From Aureococcus anophagefferens (lineage: Eukaryota; Sar; Pelagophyceae; Pelagomonadales; Pelagomonadaceae): 64,000 nucleotides of DNA. The DNA is taken from contig NW_008705565.1 of NCBI RefSeq assembly GCF_000186865.1, positions 2,153,097-2,217,096 of the forward strand. Direction: 5' to 3'. Position 1 is the stretch's first letter. Each line of letters starts with the position of its first letter. The notes under the pieces were generated by a model. That model searched no databases. It saw nothing but the letters and a program-made list of their open reading frames with translations, and had not been told where the DNA came from. A program made the position numbers and the translations under genes. Positions 7,894-37,842 of this stretch are shown here, piece by piece.

Positions 7894-10800
7894 ATGGGCA
7901 GCCCGGTAGCAGTCATCGCGCTGCTACTGCCACTAGTCCGCGCAGCAGCAAACTGCGACCGTTCGCCCACGCCCATCTACGTCTACGACGCGGATAAAAT
8001 CGACAATCCGTGGCTCGCGCACGCCGTGGACCGGCTCACGCGCAACCTCGTGCCGTCGGCCGTCGCCGTCGCGGACCCGAGCGATGCCTGCTGGTTCCTC
8101 GTGACGTCGCCCGCCGCGGCGGCCGGTCCCTTTGCCGACGCCGTCGCGCTCGCCGCGGAGGCGCCGCTGGCGCGGCTCGCGCACTGGGGCCAATGCGGCG
8201 CGAACCACGCCGTCTTCATGAGCGAGCACCCCGACGAGGAGACGCCGTCCGTTTGCCGGGCCGATTCTCAATGTCGCTGCAACTGTTTCGAAAAAGGATA
8301 GACGATCGCTCGTGTCGATGCCGCCGCAACTATTTCGATGAAACATGATCGTTCGTCCAAAAAAAAACAGCCGAAACGACTTTGTCGCCGCAGGTCCTTC
8401 GACGTCGGCGGCGCGGCGGTGCTGCGCTACGCGCTGACGAAGCGCAGCTTCCGCAGGGGCCGCGACGTCCAGCTGCCCGTCTACTACCCGGGCGCGGAGC
8501 CGCACCGGAACTACGCGGGCGCGCGGCGGACGGACGCGGACCTCGACGCCGCGGCCGCGTCGACGGCGCGGCCGCTGCTGCTGGGCTTCGTCGGCACCAT
8601 CCCCGCGGCGGGCACGCCCTACGTCGTGCCCGCGGCGCCGTCGACCTTCGGCCTGCGGAGCCGCGTCGTCGCGAGCTGCGCGCGCCGGGGCGGAAACGGG
8701 GCGATTCGAGGTCGCTTCAACACGAATGAAAGCCATCTACATTTCCGCGTCGAGAGATCGCTCGTCCAAATATGAGCCGAAACGAGTTGATCATGAAAGT
8801 GGAAACCGCCTCACCCGTGCGTCGCTCCCCAGGCGCCCACTCGCTGAGCAACGGGGTCGTCGTCGCGCACGCGGACGACGAGTCCGACTGGGGCGGCATG
8901 TGGAGCGACCACTACGCCGCGGTGCTCGCGAACTCGAGCTACGCGCTCTGCCCCGGCGGCGCGGCGCCCTACGCGTCGGAGCGGCTCGTCGACGCCATCC
9001 GGGCCGGCGCGGCGCCCGTCGTCGTCGACGACGGCCTCCTCGTGTTCCCGTTCGCGGGCCTCGAGGACGCGGACGCGCTCTGGGCGCGGTGCGCCGTCGT
9101 CGCGACGCCGGATTTGATGCGCTACGGGTCCCGCGGCCTCCTGCGCCGGCTCGACGACGAGCGGGACGCGGGCCTGCTGCCCGCGCGGCTCGAGGCGTGC
9201 CGGAGCCTGAGGGACCGCTTCCTCGGCGACGCGGACGCCGTCGTCGACGCGGCCTTCCGCGCGCTCGCGGCGTCGGCGCGGACCTGCGACGCGCCGCTGC
9301 CGCCCTGCGCGGCCCTGAACTCCGGCGGCACCTGCGCGGGCGAGCCCGTGGACGCGGGCCGCGACCGCGTCCGATCGAAGCCGACGTACCGCGAGAACGA
9401 GCGCGACCTCGTCGACGGCCTCCGCTGCCTCCGGAGCAACGCGGGGCCCGGCGACCGCCTGCGCGAGCTCGCCCTGACCGTCGCCGTCGCCGAGGAGTTC
9501 ATCCTCGTGGCCGCGCCGCGCCTCGCGGCGAACGAGTACGACGTCGCGACGCGGCTCCACGAGGAGCTCGAAAAGAACGCGAGCGTCGCCGTCCCGCCCT
9601 GGGCGTCGCGGGCCGCGGGCTGGAGCCACTACGTGCTCGGCATGCTCGACGAACAGGACGGCCTCGTGCTCGACGCGCGGGACCACTACGACGCCGCGGA
9701 CCGCCTCGGCGTCGCGCGCGCGAGCCGCCACGGGATCCCGATCCGCGACCTCCTCGCGGCGGAGCCCGTGCTCCTGGGCGTCGAGACGCGGTCCTGGCTC
9801 CTCAAGGAGATGGCCACGGGCTGGCGGCTCTGCGGGGCCGTGGCCTGCGGCGTGTCCCTCGGCGACCCCTTTGAAGGGGACCACGCGACGGTCTACCTCA
9901 CGACGCACGCGTCGAACGGCTTCCCCGTGGACTTCCCCTACGTGGACCGGCCGCGGCACGCCAACGCCGTCGTCTTCATGGAGCACGACGCGCGCTTCTT
10001 CCCCGACGGCGGCTTCGAGAAATCGCTGGAGGCCTTCCGCGGCGACGCGGACGTGACGCTCGGCTTCGCTCCGGGGGCGCCGCTCGCGGGCGTGCCGCAC
10101 CTGCCTCTCTCCTACGTCACGGACCCGCCGGGCGCCTTCGCGACGCCGCCCGTCGACTTCGACCGCAAGGCGAAGCACGTGCTCTGGGTCTCGTCGCAGT
10201 GCGACCCGAAGTTCGCCCGCGACAGGCTCGAGCGCGTCGACGCGCTCCGCGCCGCTCTCGGGCCCCTCTTCGCGTCGCACGGCGCCTGCCGCCCGACGGC
10301 GACCATGGAGGCGACCTTCCCCGAGTGCGCGTCCCTGCCGACCGACGCGCGGAGCGGCGGCGCCGCCACCGTCGACGACGACCCGCGGAGGCGCTGCGCG
10401 TACCGCAAGTCCGCGTTCGTCGCCGCCCGCGTGGACATCAAATCTTCAACCCGACTTCAATGTGAGCGTATTTGAAGGTTTCGACGCAAAGTTTTCTTTT
10501 GTGCTTCGAGAACTCGACGAGAGCGATCGATTCGTCCAAAAGTCAGCCGAATCGACTTCGATTTGGCCGAGCTAGAGAATTTCAAAGTTTGGTTGGGACG
10601 TCCCAAACCAGTGGTTGATTTCCGCACAGGTCGCCGCCTACGAGAACTCCGCGGCGCCGGGCTACGCGACGGAGAAGCTCTTCCAGGTGCTGGCCGAGGG
10701 CAGCGTGCCCGTCTACTGGGGCGCGCCGGACGCGCGGGCCCTGCTGCCGGCGCCCGCGGCCGCCGTCATGGTCGACGACTTCGAGGGCCCGGCGCTCGAG

Positions 10801-13800
10801 CCGCGCGGAACCCAAACTTCTCTCGCTCGGTCAAATCGAAGTCGATTTGGCTGATTTTTGGACGGGTCGTTTTCTCTCGTTGAGTTCTCGACGAATAGTA
10901 CAAGGATTTGTGTCGAAACCGTCGAATACGCGCACATTGAAGCCTGAGTTGGGGTCCACGCAGGCGCACGTCGCCGCGTACCTCGCGCACGCGCTCGCGA
11001 ACCGCACGGTCTACGACTTCCACCTCCACTGGCGGTCCCTGCCGCCGAACCTCTGGGCGCCGGGCTTCCGCCGGGCGCTCGACCACGCGAAGCCGTCCGT
11101 CTTCTGCGCCGCGTGCGCGTTCGCGGCGGCGACGCGGCGCAAGTACGCCGCGCCGGAGCCGTCGCCGACGCCGGACGCGGAGCTCGACGACCTCATGTCG
11201 TGGCGGCCCGCGCGTTCCCCAGGGTCGGTTTTCAAAGAAGAAGACTTCAACTCTTCCCGTTGCGCGCGCGTTCCTTCGAGACGGACGGGCCGCGCGGCCT
11301 CGCGCCGCTCGGCTCGCTCGGTTCGCCGGGGGACCCCCGCGACCCCCCCCGACACCGCAGGTGCGCCCCGGCGGCAAGATCATCCACGAGCCGGCGCCCA
11401 TCTTCCTCTACCGGCGCTACAACGAGAGCCGTCACTGGCGGGACCTCGAGGTGCTCACGCCCGCGGCCGAGGAGCGCGTCGTGTCGCCCGTCGAGGCGCG
11501 CGCGGCCGTCGCGGCGCGCGCGGCCGCGGGCGGCTACGTCGCCTGCCACGAGGTCGCCTGCGACGGCGACCCCGCCTGCCGCGCCGTGGCGCCGGTGGCC
11601 TGGTGCGGCGACGAGCGCGTCGCGCTGCCGCCGGGCGCGTACGCGCTCGCGAGCTGGCTCGAGCGCGGCGCCGAGCGCCGCGGCAAGCGCGGCGCGCGCT
11701 TCCACGTCGTCGCGAGCGCGGCGCCCGGCGACTCCTGCGGCGCCGTCGCCGGCGACGCGGGGTGCCGGGCCCGGGGCTACTACGTCGACGTGGGCTTCAA
11801 CGACGCGCGGTCGCGGACGCACGCGCTCGACGTCGACCGCGGCTGGCGGGGCCTCTGCGTGGACCCGGAGCCCGAGGCCGTCGGCGCGCGGGCCTGCGCC
11901 GTGGCGCGGGTCGCCGCCGGCGCCGCCGACCGCGCCTTCGCGGCCTACGCGCGCTACCTCGGCGACGACGGCGCGCCGACGGGGTCGCTCAACGGCACGC
12001 GCGGCCGGCCCGCGCTCTTCCGCAAAAAGGTGCGGACGGCGACGCTCGGCGCGCTCCTCGACGGCGCGGCCGCGCCGCCGATCATCGACCACCTCCACGT
12101 CGACACGGCGGGCTCCGAGGCCGAGGTGCTGCGGGGCTTCCCGCACCACGCGCGCTGCGCGCGCCGCGTGTCCGTGAGCGCGGCCGCGGCCCCCAAATCG
12201 CAGCGCCGCGTCCACGTCTTCCTCGAGGCCCACGGCTACGTCTTCGAGGGCACCGACCGCGGCTGCGACGTCTTCTACGGCGACTGCGGCGCCTTCGCGC
12301 CGAGCGAGGGCGCGCCCCTCCTCGCGCTCAAGAGCCCGCGGCCCGGCGACGAGCGCGGCCAGTCGGTGAAAGTCGCGCTCTCCGCGGACCTCACGGCCGC
12401 GCCCGAGGTCCGGCGCGACCCCGACGCCTACGACGTCTGCTTCGACTGCGGCTTCGGCAAGAGCTGCCACGGCCTGCGCGGCGGCCTCGTGCTGCCGCGC
12501 TGCGACGCGCGCGAGCTCGGCGACGGGCTCGGACGGGTCGACGCGTGGGTCGAGCGGCGCGAGGGCTCGCGCGTGGGCCCCAAGGTCTGGGCCTGGCTCT
12601 GGGACGACGCGGCGACGGCGCTGGAGGCGCTGCGAAACAAGACGCCGCAGAACCACGGCCGCGTGCGCCTCCACCTGGGCGTCGCGCACGAGCACCTCGG
12701 CGACGGCTTGCGCGCGGCCGCGGAGTTCGGCGCAGCCGCGGCGCTCGGCGAGCCCGGCGCCGCCGCGCGCCTCGCCGCGCTCCTCGAGCGCGGCGCCGCG
12801 GCGCCGCGGTCCGCCTGCGCCGCGGAGGCGCCCCGGGGCGTGCGCCTCGCGGTCCACTGCGGGGCCCTGGACGAGCGAGGGACGACGGTGTCGACGTACG
12901 ACTACGCGGACCTCGCGCTCGCCATGGGCCTCGTCGACAGCGTCCTCGTGCTCCACGACGCCAGTGTGCCGCCGCTGCCGGCGATCCTGGCCAAGTTCGA
13001 GGCGCGCTTCGGCCGGGACCGCGTCGTCGGGGTTGCGGCCGGGGACGTCGACGGCGTGTTAGCGCGCGACGGCGCGACGCACTTCTACGTCCAGAAGGCG
13101 GGTTTGGACGACGGCCTCGTGAGCGCCGTCGCGCGCACGCTCGTGCACTGCGTCTTCTTCGCGACGCAGGCCCACGGCGACGTCTACGCGCGCGTGAGCG
13201 ACCACGTGCCCGTCGACGGGCCCGCGTCCGCGCCGAAATCGTCAACCCGACTTCAATGTGCGCGTACGCGACAGTTTCGACGCGAGTCCTTCTGTCGTGC
13301 TTCGAGAACTCGACGAGAGCGATCGATTCGTCCAAAGATCAGCCGAATCGACTTCGATGTGACCGAGTTCTGAAGTTTGGTGGGGACCCCCGAAACCAGC
13401 GGTGGATTTCCACGCAGGCCCGCGTCCGCCGCGGCCGTCGTGCCCTTAGTCGTCCGCCCGGGCGACGTCGACGGCCCGGACCTGCGGGAGGAGCTCGGCA
13501 TCGCGGCGAACGCGACGGTCTTCGGCCGCCACGGCGGTCTGCACACCTTCTCCATCGACTTCGTCAAGGCCGTCGTCGAGGCGCGCGCGGCGGCGCGGCC
13601 CGACGTCGTCTTCCTCTTCATGAACACGGCGCCCTTCGGCGCGCCGATTCCCAACGTCAGATTCATCCCCGGCACGGCGGACCCGGACCGCGTCGCGGCC
13701 TTCGTGCGCACCTGCGACGCCATGCTCCACGCGCGCGCCGAGGGCGAGACGTTCGGCCTCGCCGTCGCGGATTTCGCGCGCCACGACCGGCCCGTGCTCA

Positions 13801-14102: not shown

Positions 14103-14112
14103 AGGCGAAAAC

Positions 14113-15849: not shown

Positions 15850-16017
15850 GGCTCCGCGCGCGCCGCTCCGGCGGGCTCGCGGGCTGCCCGCAGCGCCAAA
15901 TCGGCGGCGCCGGCGACGCGCGAGCTTAGGACGCCGCCCGGGCTGCTCACAGCAGCTTTGCATGGAAAACGTCAACCACTTGAATCCCTGGTGATTGACG
16001 CCTGCTGCACAGAGGCA

Positions 16018-17457: not shown

Positions 17458-17530
17458 CCTAAGATGTGCGAACGGCACTTAAGCTTGGCGGCAAGGTGAC
17501 CTGTGTCCAATGGTGCCGTGATCACGTACG

Positions 17531-19307
17531 ATGTCCGCGTCGCGCACGCTGAAGCTCGCGCTCGCGCTCTGCGCGGCGAGTTCGACGGCGTTCGTCGTAC
17601 CGGCGCCGCGCTGGACTACCATACAACACCCGCGCCGGGCCCGGGCGCGCGCCCTCCGCGCCAGCGAGAGCCTCTCCCCGGCGGAGCGCACCTGGTCCGC
17701 GCGGCGGAAGCTCGCGCGCGCGGCGTTCGACGCGCAGCTCGGCTGGAACCGCATCGACGACGAGGCCGCCGACGAGGCGGACGCGGCGGGCGCCGACGCG
17801 GAACCGACGAGCGACGCGGCGGCGAACACCGTCGGCACGACGGCCTTCGGCGTCGTCGTCGTCGCGCTCGTGCTCCGCTTCGGCGGGCGCGCCGCGCTGC
17901 TCCAGGTCCTGGGCCTCGACGTCGCCGCGGACACGGAGATCGCCCAGCGCATCGACGACTTCGTCGCCTGGAGCCACAGCTTCGACGTGATTCCGGGCTA
18001 CGAGGACGCGACGTTGCTCCTGCTCTACTGCGGCGCGTTTATCGTCGCCAAGGTCGGCTGCGTCGACCCGCTCACGTTCGCGCTGGCCATCTCGTCGGGC
18101 GTCTTATTCGGCGGCGTCGTCAACGGCGCGCTCGTCGCGACGGCCTGCGCGACGATCGGGTCCTCGGTGGCCTTCGGATTAGCAAGATACGGCCGGCCGC
18201 GGCTCCGGGAGAAGCTGCTCGTGCTCGTGCGCCGCGACGCGAAGACGCGCGCGCTGGAGCGCGCCGTCGCCGAGCGGGGCTTCGTCACCGTGCTGGTGCT
18301 GCGCCTCGCGCCCCTGTTGCCGATCCCCATCGGCGGCTACCTGTGCCGAAACCAAATCTTCAACCCGACTTCAATGTGCGCGTGATCGAACGATTTGGAC
18401 CAAACTCTTTCACTGTGCTTCGAGAACTCGACGAGAGCGATCGATCCGTCCAAAAATCAGCCGAATCGACTTTGATTTGACCGAGCTAGAGAATTCTCAA
18501 GTTTGGTGGGGACCCCCCAAACCAGTGGTTGGTTTCGGCACAGGCGGCTACAACTACCTGTACGGCGCGACGGACATGTCGTTCCTCGCGTTCGCCCCCG
18601 CCATGTTCCTCGGGTCGCTCAAGCCCTACGCCTTCGACGCCTACCTCGGCGTCGTCGGCAAGACCGTCGTCGACGACGTCGCGTCGGGCGCGCCGACGTC
18701 GCAGCTCAGCGACCCCGTGCTCGTCGGCGTCTTCGCGGCGTTTCTAGCCATCGGCGCGCTGAGCTCGGAGCTCGCGACGGAGGCGTGGCGCGACATCGAG
18801 GCCGAGTCGCTCGCGGAGGAGGAAAAGAGGAGCGCGGGCGGCGGCGCTGTCGAGGACGCCTACCCCGAGGGCGACTGGCTCGACGTGCTCGAGGTGAGGG
18901 AAGGGGCGCCGTGGCAGGCGCTGGAGGCGGTGAGGGAAAAGGTCGCGGAGGCCGAGCCCGACGGGTCCAAGGCGCTCCGCCGCGCGGCGCGGCGCGCGCG
19001 GCGGGCCCTGGCGACCATGGCGCGCGAGGAGCTCGCGCTCGCGCGCGTCGACGACGCCGCGGCGCGCGCGGAGGAGGGCCTGCCGCCGCGGGAGGCGACG
19101 GCGGCCGAGGACGCCGCGCGCGCGGCGTTCGTCGACCGCTTCGCCGTGCGCGCGCCCGCGGCCGACGCCGCGGCCGGCGTCGCCTCCGTCGTGCCGCCGG
19201 AGAGCGACGCGGAGCTCCAGCTCCCCCAGGCGCTCCTCGAGTCGACGCTCTTCTCCTACGTCGTGTTCCGCGCGCTCCTCGACGAGGCGTCCCTCGACGA
19301 CCCCTAG
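17531..19307 (+). CDS. Plastid-targeted VTT/TVP38 (TMEM64-like) membrane protein
   Basis: Two exons (17531-18332 and 18544-19307) encode 521 residues. The leader is a signal peptide ending SSTAFVVPAP, which resembles the ASAFAP cleavage site of stramenopile plastid proteins. Membrane segments follow (VVVALVLRFGGRAALL, LLLLYCGAFIVAKVG, LTFALAISSGVLFGGVVNGALVATACATIG cut by loops), then the VTT-type stretch VLRLAPLLPIPIGGYNYLYG that spans the intron. A long Glu/Ala/Arg-rich helical tail follows. VTT proteins act in lipid scrambling and membrane shaping; plastid-envelope placement is inferred from the leader. The splice across the VTT motif is a strong check of the intron. Ends 18 bp from the convergent RING gene. 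Confidence 0.8.
18333..18543 (+). mobile_element. Introner intron, family F1, copy d (211 bp, perfect ends)
   Basis: Exact target duplication GCGGCTAC. The element starts CTGTGCCGAAACCAA and ends GGTTTCGGCACAG, which match as inverted repeats. GC donor, AG acceptor. Excision restores PIGGYNYLYG in the VTT domain. Confidence 0.95.
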
Positions 19308-19325: not shown

Positions 19326-20624
19326 TTACTGGCTCCCCGCGACGTCGCTGATGGGCCGGGCGACGCGCGCGACGGCGGCCGCGACGGCCGCGTGCGCCGA
19401 GGCCAGCGGCGCGAGCAGCAGCGCCGCGGCCGCGCGGGCGAGGCGGAGGAGCCCGTTCGCGAGGACGGCCGTCGCGCGCCGCTGCGGGTCGAGGTGCCGC
19501 AGGCTCAGGGCCAGCGCGCGGTCGACGAGCCGGAGCCGCGCGAGCGAGTCCGTCGCGCGGAGCGCGTCGAGGCGCACCTCCGGCGCGACGCCCAGCGGCG
19601 GCAGCGGGTTGATGAGCGCCGCCGCGTACAAGCCGTAGGCCTCGGCGTCGACGGCCGGCCCCGCGGCCGCGGGCCGCGGCCCGAGGTCGTCGAGCACGGC
19701 GTCGAGCGTCGCCGACGCGCCCCAGCCGCCCGCGCGGCAGCGCCGGAGCCACAGGTCCAGGCGCCCGTCCAAATCCGCGACGAGCCGCGCGGCGTCCGCG
19801 GCGTCGGCGTCGCCCGCGGCGTCGTCGTCCAGGTCCTCGACGCACGCGACGCGGAAGCCGTCGTCGCCGACCCAGTCCCGCGCGATGCGCCGCCGCCGCC
19901 GCGCGACGCACTCGCAGAAGTAGCGGCCGTCGGGCGTCTCCGTGCACTCGACGATCTCGCACTCGCAGAAGACGGACGCCTGGGCGGGGAAAGAGTGCGA
20001 CATTTCCAACTTTGGAGGCTCCTATCTCGGTCGTTTTCCATTCGTTTCGGCTCATTTTTGGACGAGCGATCATCTCTCGGAGCGCTCTCGACGCGTGGAT
20101 GCTTTCTTTCGGAACATTCATGTTGAAACGACGTTGAATCACTCGTTTCCTGCCCCGACGGACGCCATGACGTTGTCGGGCGTCGCGCCGACGATGCCAA
20201 AGGTCGGCGGGTCGCGCTCGAGGCTCCGCTTCACGAGGCGCCGGTACCGCGGCTCGAAGACGTGGATCTTCATGCGCTGCTTCGGCAGCATGTGGTCGAG
20301 CACGAAGAGGCCGACCCGCGCGACGGGCTTGTGCTCGAGCGGCGCGGCCGCCGCGCCGCGCGCCGCGTAGGCCTCGGGCGCGAGCCGCGCGAGCAGCGCC
20401 GCGAGCGTCGCGTTCACGGGCGGCGCCGCGGGGATGCCCTGCCACGTCGTCCGGCAGCTCGGGCACTTGGCGCTGTGCCGCAGGGACGCGACGACGCAGC
20501 GCCGGCAGAACGAGTGGCCGCAGGGCGCCGTGAAGGGCTCGTAGAGCAGCTCGCAGCAGATGGCGCACTCGCCGCAGGACTCGAGGATCGCCGGCACGTC
20601 GACGTTCGACGACCACCACGACAT
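19326..20624 (-). CDS. RING finger plus LON-substrate-binding-like protein (LONRF type)
   Basis: Exons 20624-20166 and 19979-19326 give about 370 residues. A C3HC4 RING lies at residues 17-60 (CGECAICCELLYEP, APCGHSFCRRC, CPSC). It is followed by the start of a LON N-terminal-type domain (VGLFVLDHMLPKQRMKIHV, FEPRYRRLVKRSL, PTFGIVG) which continues in exon 2 (CEIVECTETPDGRYF). The C-terminal 150 residues are Ala/Leu-rich helices. The architecture fits LONRF-type E3 ubiquitin ligases. The intron is an F2 introner and splicing restores the LON region (NVM then ASVFCECEI). Tail-to-tail with the VTT gene. Confidence 0.8.
19980..20165 (-). mobile_element. Introner intron, family F2, copy c (186 bp)
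   Basis: On the gene strand it begins with target copy GCGTCCGT, then terminal repeat CGGGGCAGGAAACGAGTG, and ends CCGCCCAG followed by an exact second GCGTCCGT. GC donor. The core CGTCCAAAAATGAGCCGAA runs sense to the gene. Confidence 0.92.
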
Positions 20625-21727: not shown

Positions 21728-21787
21728 GCCAGCTGAGGGTCCTGCACCATCGCGCTCGACGCCTCGCGCGGCTGCTCGCACGGCACC

Positions 21788-22771
21788 ATGCTCGACTCGG
21801 CGCTCCGAGTCGTGCTCGGCACCATGACCTTCGCGGGGCAAACCTCGCCGCGGGATGCGGCGACTATGCTGCGGACCTTCCTGGGCGCGGGCCACGTCGA
21901 GATCGACACGGCGCGCATGTACATGTCGGGAGAGACGGAGTCGTGCATCGGCGCCATCTTCGACGAGGAGCCCGCGTTGCAACGCCTCAAGACGTCGACG
22001 AAGGCGAACGCGTTCCAGGGATACGACAAGAGCCTCGACGCGGCGTCCGTCGAAAGGCAGATGAAGTCGAGCCGCGCGGCGCTGCGCGGCGCGCCGGTGC
22101 AGATCTACTACCTGCACAACCCCGACGGCGCGACGCCGATCCTCGAGACACTCGAGGCCGTGGACGCGCTCCACAAGGCCGGCGCGTTCGAGGAGCTCGG
22201 GCTGTCCAACTTCGCCGCCTGGGAGGTCGCCCACATCTACCACCTCTGCGCGGCGAAGGGCTTCGTCAAGCCCAGCGTGTACCAGGGCATGTACAACGGG
22301 TTGACGCGCGACGTCGAGCGCGAGCTGCTGCCGTGCCTCCGCGCGCTCGGCATGCGATTCTACGCCTACAATCCGCTCTGCGGCGGGTTGCTCGCCTGCA
22401 AGCACACGCGCGCGTCCCTCGCGGACCTCGACGACGGCTCGCGCTTCCGCAAGGACAACACGATGTACCGGGAGCGCTACCTCCAGGACGTCCAGCTCGC
22501 CGCCGTCGACGCCTTCCAGGCGGCCTGCGACGCGTCCGCGACGCCGCCGGTCCACGCGGCGCTGCGCTGGATGAGTCACCACTCGAAGCTCGCTCCGGGG
22601 GACGGCATCATCATCGGCGCGTCCAAGGTCGCCCACCTCGAGGACAACCTCGCCGGGCTCGGCGGCGGGCCCCTCGACGACGGCGTCGTCGCGAGCCTCG
22701 ACGCGGGCTGGGCGGCCGTCAAGGCCAGCGGCCTCTGCCCGTCCTACGAGCGCGGCACGTCCAAGTACTAG
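21788..22771 (+). CDS. Aldo-keto reductase (AKR7/aflatoxin-aldehyde-reductase-like)
   Basis: 327 residues, the usual length for an AKR. It starts on the first barrel strand (VVLGTMTFAG). The catalytic tetrad is visible: Asp and Tyr in EIDTARMYMSG, Lys in STKAN and His in QIYYLHNPD. LGLSNFAAWEV and FYAYNPLCGG are standard strand motifs, and IIIGASKVAHLEDNL is the NADPH-binding loop. It should reduce aldehydes with NADPH in the cytosol. The upstream region contains a TTGAAC cluster. Its stop is 13 bp from the stop of the convergent SNARE gene. Substrate unknown. Confidence 0.88.
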   Translation: MLDSALRVVLGTMTFAGQTSPRDAATMLRTFLGAGHVEIDTARMYMSGETESCIGAIFDEEPALQRLKTSTKANAFQGYDKSLDAASVERQMKSSRAALRGAPVQIYYLHNPDGATPILETLEAVDALHKAGAFEELGLSNFAAWEVAHIYHLCAAKGFVKPSVYQGMYNGLTRDVERELLPCLRALGMRFYAYNPLCGGLLACKHTRASLADLDDGSRFRKDNTMYRERYLQDVQLAAVDAFQAACDASATPPVHAALRWMSHHSKLAPGDGIIIGASKVAHLEDNLAGLGGGPLDDGVVASLDAGWAAVKASGLCPSYERGTSKY

Positions 22772-22784: not shown

Positions 22785-25163
22785 TTACTTCCGCCCCCCG
22801 AAGAGGGACCAGCGCTTGTTCCGCTGCTCCTCGACGCGCCGGCGCTCGCGGCGCGCGTGCTCGCGGTACTCGCGCGCGGCGTCGGCCAGGTCGCCGGCCT
22901 TGCCCTCCAGGCCCTCGAGGAGCTCGCCGCGCTCCCGGAGCGCCGCGCCCGCGTCGGCGGCCGCGGCGGCGGCGTCGCGGCGGCCTTCCCCGCCGCCCGC
23001 CGCGTCGCTCTCGGAGCGGCGCCGCGGCGGCTCGTCGTCGGCGGCGGCCGCCGCGACGCGGTCCGGCGCGGACCGGGCCCGCGCGGGCCGGTGGAAGAAG
23101 TTCGCGATCTTCGCGCCGAGCGGCGACGCGGCCTTCTTCGCCGGCGGCGCGGGCGGCGTCGGCGGCCGCGGCGTCCGCGGGTGGTCCTGGATGTGGCACT
23201 TGCGCTTCGCGTCCGCGATCATCTTCTCCTGTGATTCAACGTCGCTTCAACTTGAGTGTCCCGTGTGCGCGCGTTCCAGAATAAGCATCTACGCTTCGAG
23301 AACGTTCCGAGAGATGATCGCTCGTCCAAAAATCAGCCGAAACGAGTGGAAACCGGCCGAGATCGGAGCCTTCGAAATTGGGAAAGGAGCTTTTTGCGGC
23401 CCTGATCTTCTCGATGTCCATCGTCGTGTCGACCGCGTCGTAGTCCAACGGCGCGCCGTCGTCGCTGCTGCTCGAGGCGTCGTCGGGCGCCGCCGCGTCG
23501 ACGGCGCGGTCCGCGTGGGCCTCCGCCGCGGCCTCGAGCGCCGCGTCCGCGTCGTGGAACGTCGCCGCGCCGTCGGCGACGGCCCACAGGACGTCGCGCC
23601 GGTCCGCGCCGCCGACGTCCACCGTCGCGTAGAAGGCGTCGGCGACGGCCGCGAGGGCGCCCGGGGGCCCGCAGAGCGCGACGTCGACGACGCGGACGCG
23701 CGCGTGCGGCGGCGCGAAGGCCAGCGCCGCGGCGAGGAAGACGTCGACGCGCGCGGCGCCGAGGCCCAGGGGCAGCGCGCCGCCGCCCGGCTCCGCGCGT
23801 TCGAAGGCCGGCGCGAGCGCCGCGCCGAGCTCGACGGCGTCGTCGTCGGCCGCGCACCAGTCGGCGACGGCGTCGACGACGCAGCGGAGCGTCTCGCCGC
23901 GGCGGCCCGACGTCTCGAGGGGCAGGCGGCTCACGAGCGCGACGACCAGCCCGTCGAGGCGCGTGGCCCGCGCGAGATCGGAGACCCCGGGCGCGTCGAG
24001 GCTCCGCGGCTCGAGCGTCGTGCCCGGCCGCGGCCGCGCGCGCAGTAGGTCGTCGACGGCGCCCGCCCAGCGCTCGAGGCTCGCCTCCTCTTCTGGCGCG
24101 GGCGACGTCGGCCGCGGGACCGTCCGCGCGAGGAACGTCGACAGCGACCCGCCCTTCGGGGACGTGCCGCGCCGCCGGCGGGCCTCGTCGGCGTAGACGC
24201 CCGCGCGCGCCGTCGCCGGGAAGCCCCGCCACGCGAGCGCGGCGCGGCGCGCGGGCGCGCCGCCGGACGCGTCCCAGTCCATCAACCGCCGCGCCTCGCG
24301 GCACTCGTCGGCGGACGCGCCCGCGCGCGACTCGTAGCGGAGGAACCGCCGCCGGCAGGGCGCGGGGTCTTGGGCGCCGGCGGAACGGATCGTCGCGCCG
24401 CAGCGCAGCGCGCCGCCTGTGTGGAAATCAAATATTCAACCAGACTTCAATGTGAGCGTAATTGAACGGATTGCGCCGGAATCTTCGGTTGTGCTTCGAG
24501 AACTCGATGAGAGCCATCGATTCGTCCAAAAATCAGCCGAATCGACTTCGATTTGATCGAGATAGAGAGTTCTGAAGTTTGGTGGGGACCCCCCAAACCA
24601 GTGGTTGATTTCCACACAGCGCGCCGCCGTAGGAGCCCGCGAGCGGGCGGTACTCGTCGTCGTAGCCGACGCGGGGCAGGCGCAGCTCGCCGACGACCGT
24701 CGCGGTCTCGAGCGCGTCGCCGCTGAGCAGGCCGACGGCCACGGCGACGTCGCGGCGCGACGGCGCGCGGAACGTCGCGGCCGCGTCCGCCGGCCACGCG
24801 GCGCCTGCGTTCGGGAAAACTTGAAAACTCTCGAAATCGACGTCGTTGTGGCCGGGTGCGTTTCTCTCATCCACGGAGATGCGTTGAAGGACGGTAGAAT
24901 TCGTGCGTATTGAAGTCGGTTCGCTTTCCACGCGGCGCGGCGCCGCGCTCCGCGAACGCGTTCTCGCGCACGTCCGCGGGGCCGAGGACGGCCTCCCGCT
25001 TTTCGCCGGCGGCGACGCAGGTCACGCGGGCCCAGACCCGCGGGCCGACGCGGCTGCAGTGGACGAGCCTCGCGACGCGCACGACGACGTCGACGGCTTC
25101 GTCCTCCGTCCCCGTAGTTCTGGTCTCGCCGAGGAGGCCCCCTCCGCTAAACGTTCGCATCAT
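22785..25163 (-). CDS. R-SNARE-tailed protein (tomosyn-like C-terminus) with three introner introns
   Basis: Exons 25163-24944, 24804-24628, 24416-23413 and 23228-22785 give about 614 residues. The C-terminus has an R-SNARE/VAMP-like heptad segment (ALRERGELLEGLEGK, LADAAREYREHARR) with the central Arg, then NKRWSLFGGRK and no membrane anchor, as in tomosyn. The centre is an Ala/Leu-rich domain I cannot name (LDGLVVALVSRLPL, RVDVFLAAALAFAPP). An Asp/Ser-rich acidic stretch precedes the last intron. A role in vesicle fusion or its inhibition is inferred from the SNARE-like tail. Upstream exons may be missing, because tomosyn relatives normally carry WD repeats before this part. Confidence 0.65.
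23229..23412 (+). mobile_element. Introner intron, family F2, copy d, with no GT/GC at the target
   Basis: An exact duplication GAGAAGAT flanks the element. The core CGTCCAAAAATCAGCCGAA runs on the plus strand, antisense to the gene. Exact excision would need a GA donor. A GC at 23400 would instead splice in frame and leave four extra codons. See findings. Confidence 0.75.
24417..24627 (+). mobile_element. Introner intron, family F1, copy e (211 bp), antisense to its gene
   Basis: Exact duplication CGCGCCGC. The element begins CTGTGTGGAAATCAA and ends TTGATTTCCACACAG, perfect inverted repeats. The host gene is on the minus strand, so the element is spliced in reverse orientation with a GC donor and AG acceptor. 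Splicing restores YGGALRCG. Confidence 0.95.
24805..24943 (-). mobile_element. Introner intron, family F1, copy f, internally deleted (139 bp)
   Basis: On the gene strand: target GCGCCGCG, then CCGCGTGGAAAGCG and CGACTTCAATACG, ending CCCGAACGCAG and an exact second target. The F1 core is deleted but both ends remain. GC donor. Splicing gives ERGAAWPADAAA. Confidence 0.88.
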
Positions 25164-27589: not shown

Positions 27590-27632
27590 GCCTGGTGCGG
27601 AGGCAGGCCTCGACCGACCCCTAAAGCTCGCC

Positions 27633-27666: not shown

Positions 27667-27825
27667 GCGCCGTTTCGACAGGAAGCATGGTGATGTGAGA
27701 CGGTTCTCGGCCGTCGAGCCGCGTCGAGCTGCCCGAGCGCGCGTTCAGGGCCCGCCGGCGCGGCGCAGAGCTGCCCTTCGTCCTCGCGAGCGCTTGCGCG
27801 CGCGCGCTGCTCCTTTCCGTTCCTC

Positions 27826-30800
27826 ATGGGCAGCGCCATCTCCCAGGAGAAGAAGGCGGAGGCGTCGCCGGGCGGGAGCGCGCACCTCAAGGCCATCGGC
27901 AAGTTCCGCGCGTCCCTGAAGAAGGCGGCGACCGAGGCCGACGCCGAGGAGACGCGCACGGCGGAGAAGGCGTCGTCGACGTCGTCGCTGCGCGTCGTCG
28001 CGGCCCGGTCCTTCCGCGGCAGGGCCGCCGCGCCGAAGCCCGAGGAGAAGCCCCGCGGCGGCGCGCAGCTGCTCAAGCCGGAGAAGGGCTCCGACGACGC
28101 GGTCGAGGACCTGGAGGCGCTCAAGGTCCTCGAGGACCTCGGCGACGTCCGCGGCGGCTGGCTCAAGCACCGCCTGCTCTGCCACACGCACCTGCTGGTG
28201 GCCGCGGTGCACCGGGACCAGGAGCGGCACTGGTCGCCCGAGGAGCTCAGCGCCCTGCGCGAGAAGCGCTTCGCGGGCATCCGCCAGGCCGCCGAGGCCG
28301 CGCGCGCGAAATTCGACGCGCTCACGGAGAAGCAGCGCAAGCACCCGACGAACCAGGGCGACCTCGCGCTCTACAGCGACGACGCGCTCCACCAGCGCCA
28401 GGCGATCCGCGAGGACCCGGAGGTCATCGAGGAGCTCCACCGCTGGTGGTGCAAGACCAAGTCCGTCCACGACGTCGGCGGCGACGGCGGCGACGGCGTG
28501 CTGTCCGAGGTCGAGTACGGCGCGTTCCACAGCGACCTGCTCAAGATCCTGCGGGACCACGCGGAGGCGGAGGAGGACGACGACGACGACTTCGACCACG
28601 ACTCGCCCGAGGCCCTGGCCATGCTCGACCAGGACTGGAAGCAGGACTCGGCGGGCGACGGCGTCGTCGACGAGCTCGAGTTCAAGAACGCCGTCTTCCA
28701 GGTCGCGGACGTCTGGACCGCGGGCGTCGACGCGGCGGAGTACCGCGACTTCCTCGCGACGTCCTTCAAGATCGTCTACGAGTCCTACCTCGGCCGCGAG
28801 CTGTCGGTGGCGTCGCTCTGCGTCGACCTCGAGCTCACGCTCGCGTGCTTCTCGACGGCCGCGGCCTTCACCAAGGCCCACAAGGCGGCCCTCGAGCGGG
28901 CCGTCGCGCGCAGGCTCGAGGTCGACGAGCACGGCGTGTCCGCCACCGCGACGACGGCGAAGAAGAAGGGCCTGCTCGTCGAGGTCCGGGTCGAGGCGGC
29001 GATGCCGCGCGCGGCCATGGCGCTCTGCGACAAGGAGTCGTGGCACGACGGCGGCGACGACGACGACGACGCCGAGGACGGCGCGGCCACGGAGCTCGAC
29101 GCCGACACCAAAAAACGCGTCGACGCGAAGAAGCGCGCGCGCTACGACCACCGCCTCGCCGTCGACGACCGCGTGGATTCCAAATCTTCAACACGACTTC
29201 AATGTGCGCGTAATCGAACGGTTCGGACCAACCTCTTCGGCCGTGCTTCGATGACTTGACGAGAGCAATCGATTCGTCCAAAAACCAGCCAAATCGACTT
29301 CGATGTGACCGAGCGAGAGAATTTCAAAGTTTGGTCGGGACGTCGCAAACCAGCGGTTGATTTCCACACAGGTCGACTACCTCGTCGCCGCGGAGTTCGA
29401 GGAGGGCTACTACGACCCGGTCAAGGTCAAGGAGATCCTGGCGCGCCGCGTCCAGGACGCCGTCGACGCGTTCTCCGCGGACGTCGACCGCGACGGCAGC
29501 GGCCGGCTGTCGGAGGACGGCGCGGCGGCGTCGCTCCAGAAGGTCGTCCGCGGGAAGAATAGCCGCAAGTCCGCGCCGCCGAAGCCCAAGGCCGCGAGCC
29601 CGCGCGCGTCGAACGCGAGCAAGGCGCCGAAGAAGAAGGGCAAGAAGCAGGAGGCCGCGGACGCGCCCGCGGCGTCGCCCGCGAAGGCGGCAAAGGCGGC
29701 GGCGGGCGTCGTCGTCGCCTTCGACGGCGCCCTCTACGACGTCGAGTTCGCCGACGGCCTGGAGACGGGCGTCGCGCGCGACCGCCTCGCCATGGTCGCG
29801 CCGTCGCCCGACACGGCCGCGGAGGCCGCGGCCGCGCTCGACGACTCCATCGCCGTCGGCGCGACGGTGGCGTGCGCGGGCCGCGCGCCGCCGCCCGGCG
29901 ACGCCAAGCCCAAGGCCGTCAAGCTCAAGAGCAAGCCCAAGTTCAAGCTCCGGCCGCGGACGCCGACGGCCTGGGGCGACCTCATCACGACGTGGCAGCC
30001 GAAGCTCAACTTCGCCGCGGCCATGTCCGTCCGCGCGACGTGCGAGATGGTCGTCGAGATCTACGCGGCGAAGATCGACGCCAACGCCGTCGACGAGAGC
30101 AACGGCAAGGACCGGCGGACCATGTCCGCCTTCGTCGTCCAGTTCCTGCAGCTCAAGTTCGGCAAGTCGCAGAAGTTCTTCAAGACCTTCCGCGCCTTCG
30201 TCGTGTCCCTCATCCGCGTCGTCGCCGACGTCCAGTCCGGCGACGGGCTCAACGCCGACGAGGCGACGGGCCACGCGTGGATCCTCCTCTTCGCGCGGGC
30301 CTGCCGCGTCGGCGAGGACAGCGCGACGAACCCGCACCTCACGCAGGACGCGTCGGAGCACCTCTGCGACCTCATCCGCGGCTCGCGGCCGAAGCTGGAC
30401 CAGTGCGCGGCGCTCCTGATCTCCAGGGACCCGCCCAAGGGCTCCTTCGAAGCGGCGCTGCTCAACGCGCAATCCCGCATCATCACGGGCTGGATCACGC
30501 TCGAGGGCGCGAAGCGGCTCTTCGCGGCGGGCCTGCGGCGGTGCCTCGACGCGCAGCCGGGCGCCGTGGGCTACTACAAGTACAGCCTGCAGATCTTCGA
30601 CGAGCTCTCCGAGGTCCGGGAGAAGCACGAGACGAAGGACGCGCGGGCGCGCGCGGTGCTCAAGTTCTCCGACTTCGTCGTCGTCATGGTCGAGCTCTTC
30701 ACGACCATCGCGAGGCACGCCGACGGCACCATCCCGAGCATCAGCTCCGACGCCATCGAGGCGCGGGGGCGCATCTTCGCGCTCGAGAGCGGCGACTCGG

Positions 30801-30868: not shown

Positions 30869-30901
30869 GGCGGCGCGAAAAAATCGGTTAGGAGCGGCCT
30901 T

Positions 30902-32179: not shown

Positions 32180-32325
32180 GGCGGCGCTCTGTGCGGCGGA
32201 CGCCGTAGACCACTTTCTCTGGCCGCCCTTGGCCCGCGATGCAGGCGCTTGCGCTTGCGGCAAAATGCTTGCAATCGCCGATCAAAAAGCCGATCGAGCT
32301 CAGCGCGATCGCTGCCGCGTTCATC

Positions 32326-33156: not shown

Positions 33157-35445
33157 GAAAACGTGCGCGCGTTTGAACGTGTGGATGGAGAAGGGGTGGG
33201 CCTCCGTGTTGAAGACGTACGCGTCGAGCGGGAAGGACGGCGTCTCCTCCTGGATGAGGTAGAAGTACTTGAGCGTCTCGGCGATCCAGAACGACTCCAT
33301 GCGGTCGAGGCGGTTCGCGCTCGCCGACGCCCTGGGCTTGGAGACGTCGCGCATGGACGCGTGGCCGAAGGGCGCGCGGAGCAGGTCGTCGATGGCCTGG
33401 AACGACTGCCAGGACCACGCGCGGTACTTGTCCCGCATGTGGTCCAGGCCCGGCAGGATGGACAGGTACCACCAGCCCTCGGCGGCCTCGGGCCGGAGGA
33501 TGTACTCCTTCGTGTCCGTCGCGCTCAGGTCCATGCGCTTCCGCTTCACGCGTTCGGGCCCGATCTTCGTCGGCTGCTTGTCGTACATCGCGAAGCACGT
33601 CGTCGCGAGCTCGTCGGCGAGGGCGAGGTGCCTCGCCGCGCGCGCCGGGTCGTCCTGGTAGGCGGCGCCTAAAGCGACCCAGCCGGGCACGAAGCACTGG
33701 AGGTGCTCCATCGCCGACTCGCGCGAGAACGCGGACCCGCCGCGCCAGTTCAGGTTGTCCAGGTAGAGCAGGCCGTCGTCGCCGCGGGACGTGAGGCGCT
33801 GCTCCATGCCGTCGAGGGCGTCGTTGTACATCTGCCACGCGTCCTCGAAGTCGAGGGGCTCGGCGCTCTTCGTCCGCGTCGCGCGCCGGTCCGCGCCGCC
33901 CTGGAGGAGCCAGACCTTGGGCAGGTACTCGTAGAACGAGTCGGCCTCGGCGCCGAGCGTGATCTTGCCCGACGACGCGCCGACGCACTGCGCGTAGAGG
34001 CCCGGCTCGAGGCGCGCGGCGCGCTTGATGTGGTCGTAGAAGAGGCGCGCGGTCTTGAGGAACTTGGGGTCGCCGGACACGCGGGCGAGGTAGATGAGCT
34101 CCAGCTGCGTCGTGCCCGCGTGGGCGAGGCTCGGGCAGCCGCCGCCGGACCGCGCGCCGAAGCTCGGCGGGCAGACGCCCGATCGCTTGTCGAGCTTGCC
34201 GTGGATGACGTTGCCGATGTCCAGCGCGCGCGTCACGAAGATCTTGTCGCGGCTCACCTCGTAGGCCCCCAGCAGCCCGCCGAGCACGCGGATCGTCGTC
34301 TCGAAGATGGACGCGGAGCTCGGCGGGCTCCGCAGCTTCTTCCCGAACGCCTCCGTCGCGACGAAGTCGCGCGCCTCCTTGAATTCCTCCTTGAGCCCGA
34401 CGATCCACAGCGTGTCCAGCGAGTCCACCAAGGTCACGGCCATGTCGAAGCCGCTGCCGACGGCGCGGCCGCTCACGGGGGCCACGGAGTCGCGGCCAAA
34501 CGCGCGGTCGCGGTAGCCCTGCCACGCGTGCTTCACGGCCGCGGCGATCGCCGCGCGGCGCCGCGCGAGCTCCGCGGCGTCCGTCGGCGCGTCCGGCGCG
34601 CCGGCCCGCAGGCGGACCTCCGCGACGGCCGGCGGCGGCGGAGGCGCGGGCGTCCGCCGCGGGAGCGGCCGGCAGAGCGCGACGCCGTCTTTCGCCGCGG
34701 CGGGCTCCGCGGACCGCTTGAGCCAGCACGCGCGCGGCGGGTCGTCGCCGGGCGCGCTCAGGACGGCGGCGACGCAGCCCGCGTCCGCGCGGCAGGCCTC
34801 GCAGCACGTCGCCTCCGTCGCGCCGACGAGCGCGGGCCCGTCGCGGAGGTCCTGGCCCGCGACGTCCAACCCGGCCGCGAACTCGCAGGTCGCCGTGCTC
34901 GCCGGCGCCTCCAAGGGTGGCGGCGCGGCCCGGGCCCGGGGCACGCAGGCGACGACGCCGGGCTTGGACGTCGTCCGCGTCGCGTCAGCCTTGAGCCAGC
35001 ACGCGCGCGGCGGCTCGTCCTCGGCGCCGCTGAGCACGGCGCCCATGCACCAGGACCGCTCGGCGCAGAGCGCGCAGCAGGCCTCCCGGCTCGAGTCCTC
35101 GAAGGGGCCCTCGCCGACGCCGTCGCCCGAGATGTCGACGTCCGCGCGGAAGTCGCACGTCGCCGCGGGCGCCGCCGCGGCGGCCGGCGGCGGCGGCGGC
35201 GCGGCGGGCGCCGCCGGCCGCTGCGCCGCCGCGTCGATGCCCTCGTGGAGCTGCGCCATGGCCTTGCGCAGCTTCTCCATCTCGCGCGTGCCGTTGCGCG
35301 CCTCGCGGAGGCCGCGCAGCGCCTGGCGGTCCGTCGCGAGCTCGGCGGGCGTCGTCATCACGACGGCCATCCAGGTGAGCGTCGCGATGCCGATGAGCGC
35401 CGCGAGCGGGCTCACCGGGAGGGTCGAAGAGCTGTGGCGACCCAT
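33153..35445 (-). CDS. GH47 alpha-1,2-mannosidase with two N-terminal Cys-rich repeats
   Basis: About 760 residues. A type II signal anchor lies at residues 12-31 (PLAALIGIATLTWMAVVMT), then a coiled stem. Two duplicated 70-residue Cys modules follow (CDFRADVDISGDGVG and CEFAAGLDVAGQDLR, each ending in PPRACWLK), PAN/apple-like. From about residue 285 to the end comes a full GH47 domain (TLVDSLDTLWIVGLKEEF, SFYEYLPKVWLLQGG, EYILRPEAAEGWWYL, SFWIAETLKYFYL, FNTEAHPFS). It should trim mannose from N-glycans in the ER/Golgi. The frame has no stop after FNTEAHPFS and stays open antisense through the RNPS1 gene; a one-base shift gives TAG at 33153-33155. The stated end assumes that. Confidence 0.8.
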
Positions 35446-35549
35446 CTTGGGTGGCGGCGCGCGCCTGGACGGCGCCGGTGGATGCGTCTGCCGCTGCGCC
35501 TGTGGCAGGTTTTTTGCGAGCGTTTTGGCTTTGACGCACGTCGGGCGCG

Positions 35550-37842
35550 ATGGTGGACCAAGACCGCGTCGCCCGGTGGCGGGGCCTCCTCGGCGGGTTC
35601 GTGCCCCTGTCGATTCTAGGCGTCTGTCTCATCGGGTACAACGCCCCGAGCGTATTCCTGTCGCTCGCCGCGGCCCCGCCGGCCGACGGCGCCCTGCGCG
35701 GCGTTTTGACGCCCATCGTCTTCACGAACGAGTACGGGTCGCGGACGGCGGGCGATAGTTGGTACCCGTCCTTCGCCGACAGCGTCCTCGTCGAGCCCCA
35801 CCGCCTGACGACCCTGTCGACGGCCGCCGCGGACGACGGCGCGTCGGCCGACCTTTCGAGGGCGACGTGGTCCGTGTCGACGGAGCGCGGCGCGCCGGGC
35901 CCCGCCGTCGAGCTCGTCGACGGCGCCTGGACCGTCCTCTTCGACGCCGTCGGGCGCTACGTCGTCGACGTGGCCCTCCCCTACGGCGACTGCGACGCGA
36001 ACCTCGCGGAGGCGGCGGCGTCCGTCGCCGTCGCGTGCGTCTACGTCCGGCGGTCGCTCCGCAAGTTGAACCCCGCGGACCGGGAGCTCTACTTCGACGC
36101 CTTCAAGACGCTCATGGCCGTGCCGACGGCGCGGGGGCGGCGGCTCTACGGCGGCGGCTACGCGTCGCTGGACGACTTCGTCGCGGTTCACCTCGAGCTC
36201 GCGGGCGACCGCCCGCGTGGAACTCAAATCTTCAACCCGAGTTCAATGTGCGCGCATGCGACTGTTTTGCCACGAGCACATGCGCTGTGCTTCGAGAACT
36301 CGATGAGAGCCATCGCTTCGTCCAAAAATCAGCCGAATCGACTTCGATGTGATCGAGCTAGAGCGTTCTGAAGTTTGGCGGGGACCCCCCAAACCAGTGG
36401 TTGGAATCCACACAGGCGACCGCGGCAACGACGCGCTCCACGACGGCATGGGCTTCGTGGCGTCCCACAACGCGCTGACCTTAGCCTTCGAGGCGGCGCT
36501 CCAGGTCGTCGCGCCGGCGGCGTCCGTGCCCTACTGGGACTACACGGAGGACCACCATCTGGCGAACGAGGCCGAGGACCGCCTGGCGACGTTGTGGTCC
36601 CTCGACGTCTGGGGCGACGACTTCTTCGGCACGGCCTCGGGCAAGTACCGCACGGTGGAGACGGGCCGCTTCGCCTACGCGCCCATCGCCAAGGCGGCCG
36701 CGGGCGCGCGCGTCAAGTCGCCCTACGGCTACCTCCGGAGCCCGTGGAACGTGAACAAGGACCCCTTCCTCCTGCGGGCCCACAGCTTCTGCGGCGCGTC
36801 CTACGGCTGGCTCGAGGGGAGCCTCACGACGGAGGCGTCGCCCATCGACACGGCCTGGCCGTCCTGCAAGGTCCACCACGAGCTCACGTTCGCCGTCGAC
36901 TCCTTGTACGAGTGGGTCTGGGCCGCCGCGTACGCGCCCCACGGGCCCGTCCACTTCATGATCGGCGGCTACACGCACTGCGGCGACATGGCCATGGCCG
37001 CGCTCCACGGGAATTCGTCCAGCGACGACCTCGAGGCGTCGAACGTCGCCAAAATCTTGGGCTCCGTGAAGCAGCGGACCGTCGCGTTCCCGAAGACGAT
37101 GTGGCGCTACGGTCTGGTGGAGTACCCCCAGGCCTGCTCCGACGACACGCCCCAGGCCCTGTGCCACATGATCTGCGACGACCCCGTGTCGCTGGGCAGC
37201 TTCCGGAAGTTCGCCTTGACGGGCGACATGGGCGAGAACCTGTTCGGCGCGTGGGTGGCGCGGCTGCCCGTGGACCTCTGGGGCCAGTTCCTCGAGCTCA
37301 TCTGCACGACGCCCTTCACGCCGGGCGAGCAGATGGGCGCGAACTCGCCCGTGGACCCCTCCTTCTGGCCCATCCACCCGACGCTCGACCGGCTGCTCCA
37401 GTACAAGCGCATCGTCAAGCCCTTCTCGAGCCCGGGCTGGGAGGCGCCCGACGGGCCCACGAAGTACTGCATCACGGACTACGACGGCATCGGCGCGTCG
37501 GACTGCAAGGGCCACCACCCCTGGGACGTCGCGCCCTGGGCCGTCGCCGTCGACGGCGACCCGGCGTTCGTCACGAACGGCGAGCTCCACGCCATGGGCG
37601 ACCCGCGGGCCTACGCGCTCCCCTACGTCTACGACGATTTTACCTGGCCCCACTGCGACGCCGAGGGCCACGTCTTCCCGCCGCCGTCGGGCGCGCCAAC
37701 GCCCGGCGCCGACGCCGCGGCGCACAAGCACGCGGCGCCCGAGGAACGGGATCCCGACGACCGCGGGCCGCCCGGCCACGACGACGACCACGGCGAGAAG
37801 CCCCAGGAGATGGGGTCCTCGCGGCCGGGGGAGGCGGGGTAA
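35550..37842 (+). CDS. Membrane-anchored tyrosinase (type 3 copper oxidase)
   Basis: Exons 35550-36204 and 36416-37842 encode 693 residues. An N-terminal hydrophobic anchor (FVPLSILGVCLIGYNAPSVF) is followed by a beta domain and the tyrosinase core. CuA ligands are in DALHDGMGFVASHNALTLAF; WDY at ASVPYWDYTEDHH is typical. CuB ligands are PHGPVHFMIGGYTHC and WPIHPTLDRLLQYK. The C-terminal 60 residues are Pro/His/Asp-rich. It should oxidise phenols with oxygen. The F1 introner interrupts just before the CuA histidines and must be spliced for activity (HLELA then GDRGNDALHDG). Divergent from GH47 with 104 bp between start codons. Confidence 0.88.
36205..36415 (+). mobile_element. Introner intron, family F1, copy h (211 bp)
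   Basis: Exact duplication GCGACCGC; the element begins CCGCGTGGAACTCAA and ends TTGGAATCCACACAG. GC donor. Core TCGTCCAAAAATCAGCCGAA near 36315, sense to the gene. Confidence 0.95.

What the first reader, a model, noticed from the sequence alone, without database searches (positions are those of the whole stretch)
10419..36415. Family F1 introner: five introns of exactly 211 bp made of a 203-bp element plus an 8-bp target copy
Copies at 10419-10629, 18333-18543, 24417-24627, 29161-29371 and 36205-36415 have identical length, matching inverted ends (CTGTGTGGAAATCAA against TTGATTTCCACACAG) and an 8-bp duplication, four exact and one 7 of 8. Each interrupts an unrelated gene inside a recognisable motif, and removal restores the motif. 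Three more copies (10792-10963, 13220-13417, 24805-24943) are shorter or reversed. Identical length across five genes argues for recent mobility. Introners are established in Aureococcus and Micromonas; whether this exact family is catalogued I cannot tell.
Basis: partly seen in the sequence, partly recalled or inferred. Interest (0 to 1): 0.92.

Follow-up and report, generated by a model that had tools for sequence, protein, structure and literature searches.

The report
Intron-making transposons in Aureococcus-type alga
Short jumping DNA pieces have landed in genes of this alga and look like ready-made introns that the cell could cut out of its messages; elements of this kind were already described in the alga Aureococcus.

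Summary
Five 203-bp elements plus an 8-bp target copy make five predicted introns of exactly 211 bp. Three further copies differ in length; the one at 24805 is only marginally similar. A 22-base internal motif of this family (F1) occurs 1,364 times in the 49-Mb genome and 0 times in the reversed control.

The best explanation is the known one: introners, i.e. non-autonomous terminal-inverted-repeat DNA transposons. The 3' splice AG is the last two bases of the element; the 5' splice GT/GC comes from the duplicated target. Sequence alone supports splicing: 71 of 72 F1 copies have a usable donor/acceptor pair, and in 50 orientable copies AG is present at the acceptor end in 50 and at the other end in 35.

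A second family (F2, 192 bp) has polar ends: 69 of 71 copies have GT/GC on the side opposite the AG end, 21 of 71 on the other side.

The host is probably Aureococcus anophagefferens (one gene; two other genes found no protein so named), where such elements are published. Verdict: already known in kind, with some possibly new detail. No RNA reads were available.

The parts
10419..10629 (+). F1 introner copy 1: predicted intron 211 bp; target copy 10419-10426 (GTCGCCGC), element 10427-10629, second target copy 10630-10637; phase 0 in a GT10 (fucosyltransferase) gene
10792..10963 (+). F1-related copy, element reversed and shortened (164 bp), predicted intron 172 bp, duplication 6/8; same GT10 match, 162 bp of exon after copy 1
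13220..13417 (+). F1 copy with deletion (element 190 bp), predicted intron 198 bp, duplication 8/8; no Pfam match spans this junction
18333..18543 (+). F1 introner copy 2: target copy 18333-18340 (GCGGCTAC), element 18341-18543; phase 1 in a VTT-domain gene
24417..24627 (-). F1 introner copy 3: element 24417-24619, target copy 24620-24627 (predicted intron on minus strand starts GCGGCGCG); both 15-base ends match
24805..24943 (-). short introner-like segment (139 bp) with exact 8-bp duplication; only marginal similarity to F1; 177 bp of exon from copy 3
29161..29371 (+). F1 introner copy 4: target copy 29161-29168 (7/8), element 29169-29371; phase 0; relative's protein P0147 is continuous across the junction
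36205..36415 (+). F1 introner copy 5: target copy 36205-36212 (GCGACCGC), element 36213-36415; phase 1 near the start of a tyrosinase domain match
46186..46377 (-). F2 introner element (192 bp, duplication CGCGTCGC 8/8); predicted intron on minus strand
19980..20157 (-). F2 introner element (178 bp), duplication 8/8 (GCGTCCGT on minus strand)
23231..23384 (+). F2 core, 91% identical to 46201-46354, ends not found

Best explanation
F1 is a large family of introners: 203-bp non-autonomous DNA transposons (MITE-like, 8-bp target duplication, terminal inverted repeats). A transposase supplied elsewhere inserts the element into an exon and duplicates 8 bp. If the duplicated target begins with GT or GC in the reading direction, it serves as the 5' splice site. 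The last two bases of the element (outermost bases of the inverted repeat, read ...CAG) serve as the 3' splice site. Removal of 211 nt restores the exon exactly. Most F1 copies have AG at both ends, so the family can work in either orientation. Shown here: anatomy, copy number, donor/acceptor pairing, one-sided retention of AG, continuous domains after removal. Inferred: that splicing occurs, that a transposase moves the elements, and that insertions lacking a usable donor are removed by selection.
For: Eight copies in the window. 1,364 genome hits of a 22-base internal motif (up to 1 mismatch), 0 in the reversed control; 6 of the 8 window copies contain it at that stringency. Of 84 F1 copies examined, 72 have a duplication of at least 7/8 and 58 have 8/8; 45 of the 72 are exactly 203 bp (the other 12 rows were dropped from later counts). 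71 of the 72 have a usable GT/GC donor plus AG acceptor pair; 37.5% of 8-mers in their flanks would qualify as target on one or both sides. In the 50 copies orientable by target alone, AG is at the acceptor end in 50 and at the donor end in 35; all 15 discordant copies go the same way. 19 of 19 copies with AG at one end only have GT/GC on the matching side. Pfam GT10 (E 8.9e-17) spans two junctions, VTT (1.5e-16) one and tyrosinase (1.5e-13) one. Ten of 26 relatives found for the VTT protein were aligned, none broken at the junction; P0147 is 98% identical across the 29161 junction. 211 is not a multiple of 3, so retention would shift the frame.
Against: No RNA evidence. No autonomous element with matching ends was found: hAT-type hits are weak, and the three loci read show no paired F1 or F2 ends. 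12 of 84 F1 copies have poor duplications, some with ends my script may have misplaced. One F1 copy (L003) and two F2 copies (L094, L114) lack a usable donor. Targets qualifying on both sides are commoner than the flanks predict (20 of 72 against 4.4% of flank 8-mers, about 12% of qualifying ones), so some target preference may exist as well. Pfam found no domain in two of the six spliced frames scanned, and the FkbM match in a third does not span a junction.
Confidence: 0.94

Rival explanations
1. The GT/GC at the target start is the transposase's own target preference and has nothing to do with splicing; the elements are ordinary MITEs.
For: F1 targets with both GY at the start and RC at the end are commoner (20 of 72, right copy) than the flanks predict (4.4% of 8-mers; about 12% of qualifying ones). 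On the non-donor side of F2, 21 of 71 qualify against 21% of flank 8-mers.
Against: In F2 the ends differ, and GT/GC lies on the side opposite the AG end in 69 of 71 copies but on the other side in 21 of 71. A symmetric preference cannot do this. AG is also retained one-sidedly in F1 (50 of 50 against 35 of 50). Protein domains are continuous after removal.
Confidence: 0.04
2. RNA-based propagation (reverse splicing) of introns, as proposed for fungal introner-like elements.
For: Nearly all copies with a clear duplication have a usable donor/acceptor pair (71 of 72 F1, 69 of 71 F2), which a splicing-dependent spread would give.
Against: 8-bp target duplications and terminal inverted repeats are present, and F1 is found in both element orientations relative to the predicted intron. 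Fungal introners are described as lacking TSDs and TIRs (PMC9860276, section 8).
Confidence: 0.03
3. Unspliced repeats or assembly artefacts in gene-dense DNA.
For: No RNA reads were seen.
Against: 1,364 dispersed F1 motif hits; exact duplications in 58 of 84 F1 and 62 of 78 F2 copies; retained splice positions.
Confidence: 0.01

Closest known systems
Introner elements of Aureococcus anophagefferens (Huff, Zilberman and Roy 2016, Nature; text not held; known here from passages of later papers and from recall)
   Same: Elements with direct repeats and terminal inverted repeats of constant length (PMC7789003 passage); DNA transposition in both orientations with co-opted splice sites (PMC10228655 passage); about 210 bp called their characteristic length (PMC9481584 passage). 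That each carries one splice site and co-opts the other from the duplicated target is recalled.
   Different: The PMC7789003 passage speaks of canonical splicing motifs, whereas 39 of the 69 conforming F2 copies here have a GC donor. No published consensus could be compared, so identity of F1 or F2 with a catalogued family is likely but untested.
Introners across eukaryotes (Gozashti et al. 2022, PMC9860276; outline with abstract, found passages, and sections 8 and 26 seen)
   Same: Families with TSDs and TIRs that carry the 3' splice site and take the 5' splice site from the TSD (their Fig. 2B type; legend seen).
   Different: Their Fig. 2F Aureococcus sp. example carries both splice sites and adds 12 bp to the transcript (legend); conforming F1 and F2 copies here would leave no extra bases.
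hAT-superfamily MITEs (TIR form recalled, not from a call)
   Same: 8-bp target duplication; the non-acceptor end of F2 mostly begins CA (24 of 32), as in CAGGGCAG.
   Different: F1 ends mostly read CTGTGTGG; no hAT-type gene with matching ends was found.

Membership tests
Introner (TIR/TSD type) | Many similar introns at unrelated gene positions in one genome | tested here: met
   1,364 motif hits, 0 control; window copies in three different Pfam-named genes
Introner (TIR/TSD type) | Target site duplication | tested here: met
   72 of 84 F1 copies at least 7/8; 71 of 78 F2 copies, 40 of which were picked by an intact left end
Introner (TIR/TSD type) | Terminal inverted repeats | tested here: met
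   15/15 in two window copies, 10-11/15 in three; TIR triplets match left to right in 53 of the 62 copies (of 72) that carry a main variant at both ends, shuffled mean 30, maximum 44
Introner (TIR/TSD type) | One splice site carried, the other co-opted from the duplication, exact restoration of the exon | tested here: met
   71 of 72 F1 and 69 of 71 F2 copies have the pair; domains continuous on removal in three window genes. By sequence only.
Introner (TIR/TSD type) | Spliced in RNA | not testable with these tools
   no reads available
Aureococcus anophagefferens introner elements | Host is A. anophagefferens | tested here: inconclusive
   Leans to met. NCBI protein P0030 labelled A. anophagefferens matches the window gene at 21785-22768 with one substitution inside three blocks that I delimited by eye; overall 253/299 with 21 gaps. 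Against: the 26 hits for the VTT gene and the single hit for the 29161 gene bear no Aureococcus name.
Aureococcus anophagefferens introner elements | Same consensus as a published family | not tested
   paper not held; no published consensus available
Aureococcus anophagefferens introner elements | Insertion between nucleosomes | not testable with these tools
   only two close pairs in the window, with 162 and 177 bp of exon between
hAT superfamily | hAT transposase in an element with the same ends | tested here: inconclusive
   four weak PF05699 hits (E 0.001-0.004, over the Pfam cut-off in that search); three of the four loci were read (L149, L150, L152), without paired F1/F2 ends but only 3-8 kb each. 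The searches rang in none of the control genomes.
hAT superfamily | 8-bp TSD and CAG-type TIR (recalled) | tested here: inconclusive
   8-bp TSD met; the non-acceptor F2 end begins CA in 24 of 32 copies, F1 ends mostly CT

The most novel reading that the evidence does not exclude
The two families show how an ordinary transposon could become an introner by one base. In F2 one end keeps the CAGGGCAG form and the other reads CTGGGCAG, so that its terminus becomes ...CCCAG, a 3' splice site at the exact edge of the element. F2 has this at opposite ends in two mirror-image groups, each tied to one splicing direction, while F1 mostly has it at both ends and can splice either way. F1 and F2 share an internal core, so end changes, not body changes, would create and orient intron-making transposons. 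Whether this is already in print was looked for only by the searches, in a library that lacks the original paper.
Probability: 0.4. Interest if true: 0.55.

Novelty: already known. Interest (0 to 1): 0.4.

Why it matters
Introners are proposed as the major source of new introns (PMC9860276, abstract). The general mechanism is published. What this window adds is a sequence-only demonstration, without RNA, that splicing rather than a symmetric target preference sets which insertions are seen: donor dinucleotides follow the polarity of the element's ends. It also gives a possible one-base route from MITE to introner that can be tested by comparing strains.

Tried and rejected
No exact match to the F1 motif was found in the viral contigs or the prokaryotic genome contigs (the tool says records very near the window's genome may be left out). 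Rfam gave nothing at gathering scores. The search for an autonomous partner by Pfam hAT (PF05699), KDZ (PF18758) and DUF4371 (PF14291) gave no element with matching ends; none of these families is excluded, because the controls rang nowhere. In one search a loose scan for F1/F2 ends (up to 4 mismatches) gave four single matches (one in L152, three in L150), none of them forming a pair of ends. L149 holds a decayed hAT-type fragment inside an 8/8 duplication with ends CAAGCAAGTCC/CAAGCAGGGCC, unlike F1/F2 ends. The idea that P0001, P0027 and P0147 prove empty sites was dropped: their contigs could not be read, and how those proteins were predicted is unknown. The idea that the host is a different species (85% overall identity) was weakened, not excluded, by seeing that most of the loss lies in broken blocks of the database gene model.
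Full report
OBSERVATION. Five segments of exactly 211 bp lie at the stated coordinates. Each is a 203-bp element plus one copy of an 8-bp target. The second target copy follows the predicted intron, 8/8 in four and 7/8 at 29161. In the window 0.26% of positions show at least 7/8 similarity at that spacing and 0.03% show 8/8. The five elements are 86-90% identical to a 45-copy majority sequence and 77-85% identical to each other; the least similar of the 45 is at 39%. The inverted ends match 15/15 at 18333 and 24417 and 10-11/15 in the other three, where the changes lie mostly on the donor side. Copies at 10792 (reversed) and 13220 (shortened) clearly belong to the family. The one at 24805 has an exact duplication but only marginal sequence similarity.

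HOST. The window is G000 contig C5, 2,153,097-2,217,096, in a 49.05-Mb assembly of 86 contigs. An uninterrupted open frame with aldo/keto-reductase relatives (PF00248) at 21785-22768 finds an NCBI protein named from Aureococcus anophagefferens. In three blocks that I delimited by eye there is one substitution, the rest of the difference lying in apparently broken parts of the database model (253/299 identical, 21 gaps overall); environmental proteins P0027 and P0028 are 96% identical. Against this, none of the 26 relatives of the VTT gene and not the single relative of the 29161 gene bears an Aureococcus name. I take the host to be probably A. anophagefferens or a very near relative.

GENOME SPREAD. 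An internal 22-base F1 motif (up to 1 mismatch) has 681 forward and 683 reverse hits, and none for the reversed control. Six of the eight window copies contain it at that stringency, so the family is probably somewhat larger. I examined 84 F1 copies in L001-L078, found by that motif with up to 2 mismatches. 72 have a duplication of at least 7/8 and 58 have 8/8. 45 of the 72 are 203 bp, 7 are 202, 5 are 204 and 5 are 205. The 12 poor-duplication rows were dropped before the counts below.

SPLICING LOGIC WITHOUT RNA. Read in the splicing direction, the predicted intron begins with the duplicated target, which must start GT or GC, and ends with the outermost AG of the element. A usable pair exists in 71 of 72 F1 copies. 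In 8-mers of the flanks the share qualifying on at least one side is 37.5%. In 50 copies the target qualifies on one side only, which fixes the direction independently of the ends. There the acceptor-side AG is present in 50 of 50 and the same bases at the other end in 35 of 50, with all 15 discordant copies in one direction. This is what selection for the 3' splice site predicts. Against a pure-selection reading, targets that qualify on both sides are commoner (20 of 72) than expected (about 12% of qualifying 8-mers), so the transposase may also have some preference.

SECOND FAMILY. The repeats at 46186-46377, 19980-20157 and 23231-23384 belong to a second family, F2: mostly 192 bp, 8-bp duplication, ends CWGGGCAG. 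It shares with F1 a core of about 53 bp at about 80% identity. A 33-base F2 pattern (up to 2 mismatches) has 1,967 hits, 0 in the control. Of 79 F2 copies looked at, one had no findable ends; of the other 78, 71 have a duplication of at least 7/8 and 61 of those are 192 bp. Forty of the 78 were picked by an intact left end. F2 ends are polar: one end reads CT (giving a terminal AG), while the other is CA in 24 of 32 copies not picked by their ends, CG in 7 and CC in 1. Copies picked only by a CA left end had AG at the right end in 20 of 20; copies picked by a CT left end lacked it at the right in 20 of 20. On the side opposite the AG end, 69 of 71 targets give GT (30) or GC (39); on the other side 21 of 71 do, somewhat above the 21% of flank 8-mers. 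Exact left-end counts in the genome are 297 for CA and 748 for CT. A symmetric target preference of the transposase cannot explain this; splicing does.

PROTEIN EVIDENCE. Removal of the elements gives continuous domains: GT10 across the 10419 and 10792 sites, VTT across 18333, tyrosinase across 36205, there 12 residues inside the match. Ten of 26 relatives of the VTT protein were aligned, including P0001 at 98%, and none is broken at the junction. P0147, 98% identical and the only relative found, is continuous at the 29161 junction. No Pfam domain was found for the frames holding 24417/24805 and 29161, and the FkbM match in the frame holding 13220 does not span that junction. No relatives were sought for the 24417 gene. 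How the database proteins were predicted is not known, so they show that removal restores the protein, not that the sites are empty.

INVERTED REPEATS VARY TOGETHER. Of 72 F1 copies, 62 carry one of the variants TGG, TGC or CCG at positions 6-8 of both ends; the two ends agree in 53 of the 62. Over 10,000 shuffles the mean is 30 and the maximum 44. This fits subfamilies kept symmetrical by transposition.

MECHANISM. Most likely: transposase in trans, insertion into transcribed exons, 8-bp duplication, donor from the target and acceptor from the element, loss of insertions that cannot be spliced. The rarity of non-conforming copies (1 of 72 F1, 2 of 71 F2) suggests that insertions are largely confined to genes, or that unspliceable ones are removed very efficiently; I did not separate these. 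The superfamily is unproven. The 8-bp duplication and the CAGGGCAG end of F2 resemble hAT elements (recalled), and the genome has weak hAT-type matches, but none of the three loci read has paired F1 or F2 ends.

COMPARISON. Later papers describe A. anophagefferens introner elements with direct repeats and terminal inverted repeats of constant length and canonical splice motifs (PMC7789003, passage), insertion in both orientations with co-opted splice sites (PMC10228655, passage), and a characteristic length near 210 bp (PMC9481584, passage). The original 2016 paper was not held. F1 fits these features except that GC donors are common here, so I rate it already known in kind and probably in this very species. 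Mirror-image polar groups were not mentioned in the passages I saw, but I did not see the original or any supplement.

Noticed in passing
window 46186-46377, 19980-20157, 23231-23384: Second introner family F2 with different ends but a similar internal core to F1, 1,967 pattern hits in the genome, with polar ends and mirror-image groups.
   Followed up: yes
window 51218-51265, 54377-54424, 54801-54848: A third short repeat of 48 bp, 79-88% identical to the first copy, nature unknown.
   Followed up: no
window 42982-43249 and 45134-45401: Two stretches 88% identical, next to repeats rich in GAGGCC-like units (43598-44054 and 45465-45612).
   Followed up: no
L152:1855-5505 (minus strand): Open frame of 1,217 aa with zf-C17orf113 above its cut-off (E 1.2e-9) and, below their cut-offs, DUF4371 and hAT C-terminal matches, without recognisable F1/F2 end pairs in the 8 kb read: a possible domesticated hAT-like gene.
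   Followed up: partly
L149:713-1867: Decayed hAT-type fragment bounded by an exact 8-bp duplication (GGCGCAGT) and inverted ends CAAGCAAGTCCGAC/CAAGCAGGGCCGAC.
   Followed up: partly
window 10630-10791 and 24628-24804: Exon segments between neighbouring introners are 162 and 177 bp, near nucleosome size as reported for introners; only two cases.
   Followed up: partly
F1 copies, left against right ends: Inverted-repeat variants co-vary between the two ends (53 of 62 matched), suggesting symmetric subfamilies.
   Followed up: partly
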